Below, piece after piece: positions 45,811-52,174 of a stretch of 64,000 nucleotides of DNA. The notes below the pieces were generated by a model. The model saw only the letters and a list, made by a program, of their open reading frames with translations, had not been told where the DNA came from and made no database searches. The position numbers were made by a program, and so were the translations under genes. The stretch spans positions 67,192-131,191 of the forward strand of contig JAJZPG010000003.1 in NCBI GenBank assembly GCA_021811235.1. Reading direction: 5' to 3'. Source of the stretch: Pseudomonadota bacterium. GTDB lineage: Bacteria; Pseudomonadota; Gammaproteobacteria; Burkholderiales; Thiobacillaceae. The stretch's first letter is position 1. Every line of letters begins with the position of its first letter.

Positions 45811-45882
45811 AATAAAAAACCCCGCCTGGGCGGGGTGACGCTTCCAAAAGTAACCCCGCCGAGGCGGGGTTACTTGTTTTCA
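45811..45882. terminator. back-to-back terminators between convergent icd and cspA-like genes
   Basis: AAAAAACCCCGCC-TG-GGCGGGG and GTAACCCCGCC-GA-GGCGGGGTTAC. Confidence 0.85.
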
Positions 45883-45892
45883 GCTCAACAAC

Positions 45893-46099
45893 TCAACCCT
45901 GCGGCTGGATGTTGGAAGCCTGCTTGCCCTTGGGGCCCTGGCTGACTTCGAAGCTGACTTTCTGGCCTTCTTTCAGCGTCTTGAAGCCGCTGGTCTGAAT
46001 GGCGGAGAAATGCGCGAACACATCCTCGCCGCCGTCATCGGGGGTGATGAACCCGAAGCCCTTGGCATCGCTGAACCACTTGACAGTACCTGTTGCCAT
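45893..46099 (-). CDS. cspA: cold-shock domain protein
   Basis: [35 protein letters not shown]. Confidence 0.96.
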
Positions 46100-46384
46100 T
46101 AAAAACTCCCTCCTTGGCGTGACACTAAACACAACCGCGATAAGCGCAATGCTCTGGCGGATGACAGGACGGCATGATTTTTATGGCCGTCGGTCTGAAT
46201 TCAAGCGCGCTACCCGGTGATGCCCTGCGGTAATGCCAAACCTGCACGGTTCTTGAAACCAAACTTTTGGCTTTTTACTACCGTGCATCGGTTTTTACAA
46301 GGGGAACGCGCGAAAAAGCAGGGGCCAGGGCCGGACTGTGGTTTCCATTCAACTTGGCGGGAACGATGGGGTAGGATGCGCGCC

Positions 46385-48240: not shown

Positions 48241-51672
<3,432 letters not shown>

Positions 51673-51723
51673 GGGAGCGCGGGGGATGTACGAAATGACT
51701 AAGTCATGACAGTGATAAATGTG

Positions 51724-51752
51724 TTGACATGCATTTCGTTATATTAGAAAAT
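51724..51752 (+). promoter_or_regulatory. candidate sigma-70 promoter (TTGACA-N17-GAAAAT)
   Basis: TTGACA at 51724-51729, -10-like GAAAAT at 51747-51752. Confidence 0.55.
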
Positions 51753-51759
51753 TCTTATC

Positions 51760-51856
51760 AACACTGAGGCGCCGCAATGGCACTTGGTGTTGTCTCCTCC
51801 AATCCTCCTCCTTTGGTGGATACTCTGCCCGACTCTCGCGAGTCGGGCATTTTTTT
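51760..51856 (+). ncRNA. candidate trans-acting small RNA with CCUCC-rich hairpin loop
   Basis: Intergenic; promoter-like sequence upstream, CAACAC/GTGTTG stem, CCTCCAA-TCCTCCTCCT-TTGGTGG hairpin, terminator at the 3' end. Confidence 0.65.
51827..51856 (+). terminator. Rho-independent terminator of candidate sRNA
   Basis: GCCCGACTC-TCGC-GAGTCGGGC followed by A and seven T. Confidence 0.93.
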
Positions 51857-51898
51857 GCCTGAATTCCGCGCAGAAGGGCCGACCGGCCGGGTTGGGCC

Positions 51899-52174
51899 TT
51901 AATCGACCCGTTTCACGAACCCCTGGAACGGCGCCTGCCACTGCGCCTCGCCGATCTCGACGCGTTCGACCCGCGCCAGTGGCGGACCGTTGCGCGCCCA
52001 CGCGATCATGGCGTCGACCGCTTCGGCCGTCCCCTGGACCACCGCTTCGACCGTGCCGTCCGGCGTGTTGCGCACCCAACCGGCCACGTTCAGCCTTTCG
52101 GCCTCGATCCGCATCGACTCGCGGAACCACACGCCCTGCACGCGGCCATGGATGCGCAGGTGATGCGTCTTCAC
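51899..52174 (-). CDS. acylphosphatase
   Basis: [45 protein letters not shown]. Confidence 0.95.

What the first reader, a model, noticed from the sequence alone, without database searches (positions are those of the whole stretch)
51760..51856. Candidate small RNA exposing an anti-Shine-Dalgarno (UCCUCCUCCU) loop
Between dnaE and an acylphosphatase gene a complete free-standing transcription unit is visible. TTGACA-N17-GAAAAT is followed by a CAACAC/GTGTTG stem, then a hairpin with CC-CCAA/TTGG-GG pairing and a 10-nt loop TCCTCCTCCT. It ends in a perfect 9-bp GCCCGACTC/GAGTCGGGC terminator with a T7 tract. CCUCC-loop sRNAs that bind ribosome-binding sites are a known design in several proteobacteria, but I cannot assign this one to a named family. 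It is AT-rich at its promoter and unlike the coding flanks.
Basis: partly seen in the sequence, partly recalled or inferred. Interest (0 to 1): 0.75.

Follow-up and report, generated by a model that had tools for sequence, protein, structure and literature searches.

The report
Anti-Shine-Dalgarno sRNA after dnaE, Thiobacillus
This is a real small regulatory RNA of a known family (Rfam RF02278, 'toxic' double-hairpin RNAs that cover the ribosome-binding sites of messenger RNAs); what looks new is a conserved repressor-like site on its promoter that it shares with sulfur-handling genes, which suggests that sulfur-oxidising bacteria switch it on when reactive sulfur builds up.

Summary
Between dnaE and a convergent acylphosphatase gene lies a complete sRNA unit: TTGACA-N17-GAAAAT, start near 51760, three hairpins, terminator ending near 51856. 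It is Rfam RF02278, 'Betaproteobacteria toxic sRNA' (59 bits, gathering score 50): the B. cenocepacia double-hairpin RNAs and B. pertussis S17, with the plan of Neisseria NmsR. The window is a Thiobacillus genome. The sRNA sits behind dnaE throughout the genus; its folding is supported by compensatory changes. New here: a palindrome ATTAGA-N4-TCTAAT covers the -10. It occurs at only four places in the genome: this promoter, a BigR-like arsR with an RND pump, rhodanese-tusA-dsrE2, and a DUF302 gene. The palindrome-sRNA pair recurs in 35 of 399 genomes of the order, in 8 families. Best reading: an anti-SD sRNA held off by a BigR/SqrR-type sulfane-sulfur repressor. Transcription, repressor binding and targets are inferred, not shown.

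The parts
51724..51729 (+). -35 TTGACA
   Evidence: invariant in 24 of 24 aligned Thiobacillus loci
51747..51752 (+). -10 GAAAAT (GANNAT in most relatives), 17-nt spacer
51743..51758 (.). palindrome ATTAGA-N4-TCTTAT (consensus ATTAGA-N4-TCTAAT) over the -10: putative operator of a BigR/SqrR-type ArsR repressor
51760..51856 (+). small RNA, about 97 nt; 51791-51856 is the part covered by the Rfam model RF02278
   Evidence: 5' end inferred from the promoter, 3' end from the terminator
51760..51791 (+). 5' hairpin (AACACUGAG...CUUGGUGUU with inner GCC-GCAAU-GGC), outside the Rfam model
   Evidence: compensatory changes
51792..51800 (+). anti-SD 1: single-stranded linker GUCUCCUCC, invariant in 38 of 38
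51802..51821 (+). middle hairpin AUCC/GGAU with inner CC/GG; carries anti-SD 2 (CCUCCUCC, 51804-51811)
51826..51856 (+). intrinsic terminator, 10-bp stem, UCGC loop, U7
48241..51672 (+). dnaE (DNA polymerase III alpha), upstream neighbour throughout the genus
51899..52174 (-). acylphosphatase gene, convergent neighbour
   Evidence: matches NCBIfam acylphosphatase models, each below its own cut-off

Best explanation
A trans-acting small RNA of the RF02278 family. It is transcribed from its own sigma-70-type promoter behind dnaE, folds into a 5' hairpin, a short anti-SD hairpin and an intrinsic terminator, and carries two CU-rich anti-Shine-Dalgarno stretches: the invariant linker GUCUCCUCC and the loop of hairpin 2. 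It most likely pairs with the ribosome-binding sites of several mRNAs and blocks their translation; this step is shown for relatives and inferred here. In Thiobacillus and related lineages its -10 is overlapped by a palindrome (ATTAGA-N4-TCTAAT) shared with rhodanese-tusA-dsrE2, an RND pump behind a BigR-like arsR gene, and a DUF302 gene. The most likely wiring is repression by that two-cysteine ArsR protein and release by sulfane sulfur (inferred). The confidence given is for the sRNA and its mode of action; for the sulfur wiring it is about 0.6.
For: RF02278 at 59 bits against a gathering score of 50; a match in 32 of 35 genus relatives, the three without being 75-83% complete. dnaE-sRNA-acyP-metG order kept in the genus. 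TTGACA invariant, second A and last T of the -10 kept. 38 distinct genus sequences: 95.1% of cells paired, 8 pairs with changes on both sides; covariation score above all 500 shuffles and all slides. The AUG in the 5' hairpin is lost in 18 of 38, so a coding RNA is unlikely. Palindrome: 4 sites with at most 1 mismatch in the genome, 0 for the reversed control; 0.008 exact sites expected by base composition, 3 seen. In one locus from each of 30 genus genomes: sRNA 10, rhodanese-tusA-dsrE2 7, arsR-RND 5, DUF302 4, other 4. Palindrome plus sRNA in 35 of 399 order genomes, 11 genera, 8 families, control 0. ArsR protein: best PDB hit BigR, E 3e-17; Cys38 and Cys104, 66 apart as in SoxR Cys50/Cys116 (PMC10451225) and at the positions HlyU has (PMC4330345); both kept in all close orthologues read.
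Against: No transcript data for this organism. The repressor falls below the NCBIfam BigR equivalog cut-off (76 bits against 155). The published RcSqrR consensus ATTC-N8-GAAT (PMC9774250) is not this palindrome. The window's own copy has one mismatch. There is no direct evidence that this ArsR binds the palindrome; the link is gene neighbourhood, co-occurrence and regulon content. The two conformers of hairpin 2 are nearly equal in energy, so which anti-SD is exposed is uncertain.
Confidence: 0.82

Rival explanations
1. Only the dnaE 3' UTR and its terminator, without a start of its own.
For: No other terminator was found between the dnaE stop and the sRNA, so the hairpin probably also ends dnaE read-through. 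B. pertussis S17S is a processed product of a longer transcript (PMC11722255).
Against: TTGACA, the -10 and the palindrome are kept in all aligned genus loci while the rest of the dnaE-sRNA spacer varies. The same unit occurs at places where no dnaE is detected nearby in other families.
Confidence: 0.06
2. The sRNA is real but not under sulfur control: the palindrome belongs to another regulator (for example an Rrf2/NsrR-type or peroxide sensor).
For: One palindrome (L176) lies between two divergent genes that read by eye as a flavohaemoglobin and an Rrf2/NsrR-like regulator. The BigR equivalog cut-off is not met.
Against: The other recurrent sites sit on rhodanese-tusA-dsrE2, a BigR-like arsR-RND locus, a second rhodanese-like gene and DUF302. 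A related inverted repeat follows arsR in several other genera.
Confidence: 0.25
3. A true toxin-like RNA whose main job is to stop growth, as the family name suggests.
For: Members stop or slow growth when over-expressed (reported in PMC4603805 and PMC5688073). nmsRB plasmids could not be put into E. coli (PMC5362039).
Against: B. [quoted passage not shown] coli (PMC11722255). Single conserved chromosomal copy, no antitoxin partner seen.
Confidence: 0.07

Closest known systems
RF02278 'Betaproteobacteria toxic sRNA' / double-hairpin RNAs ncS03, ncS05, ncS27, ncS62 of B. cenocepacia
   Same: Model match above gathering score; anti-SD linker, small hairpin with CU-rich loop, terminator
   Different: One copy instead of three to five; an extra covarying 5' hairpin; palindrome on the -10
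S17 of Bordetella pertussis
   Same: The conserved linker and loop serve as Sites 1 and 2 against RBSs
   Different: S17S is cut from a precursor of about 190 nt and is Bvg-linked; here an own promoter lies directly upstream of the 5' hairpin
NmsRA/NmsRB (RcoF) of Neisseria
   Same: Three stem-loops, anti-SD1 between SL1 and SL2, anti-SD2 in SL2
   Different: 30.2 bits against a gathering score of 52: not a member; tandem copies in Neisseria
BigR/SqrR/SoxR/YgaV/HlyU sulfide- and persulfide-responsive ArsR proteins
   Same: The putative repressor has BigR as best PDB hit and the same two cysteines
   Different: Below the BigR equivalog cut-off; predicted to control an sRNA, which I found reported for none of them in the library searched

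Membership tests
RF02278 Betaproteobacteria toxic sRNA | covariance-model score at or above the gathering score, full length | tested here: met
   59 bits against 50, model 1-64
RF02278 Betaproteobacteria toxic sRNA | UGUCUCCUCCA linker, small hairpin, intrinsic terminator | tested here: met
RF02278 Betaproteobacteria toxic sRNA | expressed; slows growth when over-expressed | not testable with these tools
   needs bench work
NmsR (RF02877) | score at or above gathering score | tested here: not met
   30.2 bits against 52
NmsR (RF02877) | three stem-loops with anti-SDs in the SL1-SL2 linker and in SL2 | tested here: met
   searches compared: works like, not a member
anti-hemB (RF02837) | score at or above gathering score | tested here: not met
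   25 bits against 49.5
BigR (putative regulator, NF040642 equivalog) | score at or above curated cut-off | tested here: not met
   76.1 bits against 155
BigR/SqrR-type sulfane-sulfur sensors (wider group) | ArsR fold with two cysteines about 66 residues apart | tested here: met
   Cys38/Cys104, kept in close orthologues; spacing as in SoxR
BigR/SqrR-type sulfane-sulfur sensors (wider group) | release of DNA by sulfane sulfur | not testable with these tools
   needs EMSA with persulfide

The most novel reading that the evidence does not exclude
In Thiobacillus and other lineages of its order, an anti-Shine-Dalgarno sRNA is a member of a small sulfane-sulfur regulon: a BigR/SqrR-type repressor holds it off at the -10 palindrome, and reactive sulfur releases it together with rhodanese-TusA-DsrE2, so that sulfur load is turned into translational repression of many mRNAs.
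Probability: 0.6. Interest if true: 0.65.

Novelty: new member of a known kind. Interest (0 to 1): 0.45.

Why it matters
The signal that drives the RF02278 RNAs is unclear in most species. The shared palindrome gives a concrete, testable regulator and signal for a whole branch of sulfur-metabolising betaproteobacteria, and would add a post-transcriptional arm to sulfane-sulfur sensing.

Tried and rejected
(1) Whole-genome target search: GGAGGAGA-N2-11-ATG gives 17 sites against 3 for the reversed control, but SD enrichment alone can explain that. The best gene start, prsR (TGGAGGAGAC, 10-nt match to the linker; TIGR02915), keeps at least 9 nt in only about half of 30 species, and the site lies in what reads as the end of the upstream gene, so coding constraint confounds it: candidate only. 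(2) Coding RNA: the AUG is not conserved. (3) Membership of NmsR or anti-hemB: scores below threshold. (4) Palindromes close to ATTAGA-N4-WCTWAT near arsR in other genera: none; a looser TATTAG-N6-CTAATA-like repeat is there in several, judged by eye. (5) The plasmid search hit only the acylphosphatase gene.

Full report
What is there. Reading 51673-51900 confirms the finding: dnaE ends at 51672, a lone sigma-70-type promoter TTGACA-N17-GAAAAT lies at 51724-51752, and a 10-bp intrinsic terminator with T7 ends at 51856; both are the only ones in the kilobase scanned. The intergenic stretch 51673-51758 is 38% G+C in a window of 65%. The strand 51759-51857 folds at -43.8 kcal/mol, z -5.6.

Identity. 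cmscan puts 51791-51856 in RF02278, Betaproteobacteria toxic small RNA, 59 bits against a gathering score of 50, the only copy in the genome. Titles of contigs with the nearest acylphosphatase relatives name Thiobacillus. 32 of 35 genus relatives have a match, the three without being incomplete; elsewhere in the order it is patchy, with up to nine copies in one genome. In nearly all genus loci the order dnaE-sRNA-acyP-metG is kept.

Structure. In 38 distinct genus sequences (alignment A1) the stretch GUGUUGUCUCCUCCAAUCC is invariant. A structure of 5' hairpin, inner hairpin, middle hairpin and terminator pairs in 95.1% of cells, with 8 pairs changed on both sides and a covariation score (0.178) above every shuffle and every slid control. 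The inner GCC/GGC helix has changes on both sides in all three pairs. Across the order the 5' hairpin keeps its ends while its inside is replaced (by eye). Relatives keep the first (38 of 38 for its four outer pairs) and break parts of the second. In either fold at least one anti-SD is exposed.

How it most likely works. Relatives are shown to act on ribosome-binding sites: S17S directly represses a sigma-54 activator in B. pertussis, and its two sites are conserved in betaproteobacteria (PMC11722255); ncS27 over-expression slows, and silencing speeds, growth of B. cenocepacia (PMC5688073); NmsRs use two anti-SDs with the same layout (PMC5362039). The same action here is inferred.

Control of the promoter. 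The alignment of upstream regions shows, besides TTGACA, a palindrome ATTAGA-N4-TCTAAT across the -10. In the whole genome only four sites match with at most one mismatch, and none for the reversed control. The other three lie before an RND adaptor gene directly behind a BigR-like arsR, before rhodanese-tusA-dsrE2, and before a DUF302 gene. In 40 genus genomes 38 have a site and none a control site; in the 30 loci examined 26 fall in the same four contexts, and of the other four two read by eye as peroxiredoxin and one as a rhodanese. Palindrome and sRNA occur together in 35 of 399 genomes of the order, 11 genera, 8 families, control 0.

The likely repressor. The arsR product has BigR as best solved relative (E 3e-17) and cysteines at 38 and 104, the spacing of SoxR and the positions in HlyU. 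It is 82-91% identical in all 13 palindrome-bearing genomes tested, while three genomes with an RF02278 match but no palindrome there have at most 31%; three others without it have 67-86%, so co-occurrence is not strict. It fails the BigR equivalog cut-off. YgaV, a homologue, binds over the promoter elements of its own gene and is released by sulfide (PMC9774250), the arrangement expected here. No binding has been shown for this protein or this site.

Verdict. The sRNA is a new member of a known family and in itself ordinary. The predicted link to sulfane-sulfur sensing was not found in the literature I could search and is directly testable.

Noticed in passing
window 45846-46275 (-): cspA thermoregulator (RF01766), 92.9 bits, in the same window.
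   Followed up: no
L132 2212-2538 (G000:C8:60211-60537): BigR-like ArsR protein, 82-91% identical across several families of the order, followed by an RND adaptor gene.
   Followed up: partly
L020, L146-L149 (G042): One genome of the order carries nine RF02278 matches, two of them about 380 bases apart.
   Followed up: no
L176 1501: The palindrome also lies between two divergent genes that read by eye as a flavohaemoglobin and an Rrf2/NsrR-like regulator.
   Followed up: no
L127 1500-1515: Ribosome-binding site of prsR (PEP-CTERM response regulator) matches 10 nt of the sRNA linker; candidate target only.
   Followed up: partly
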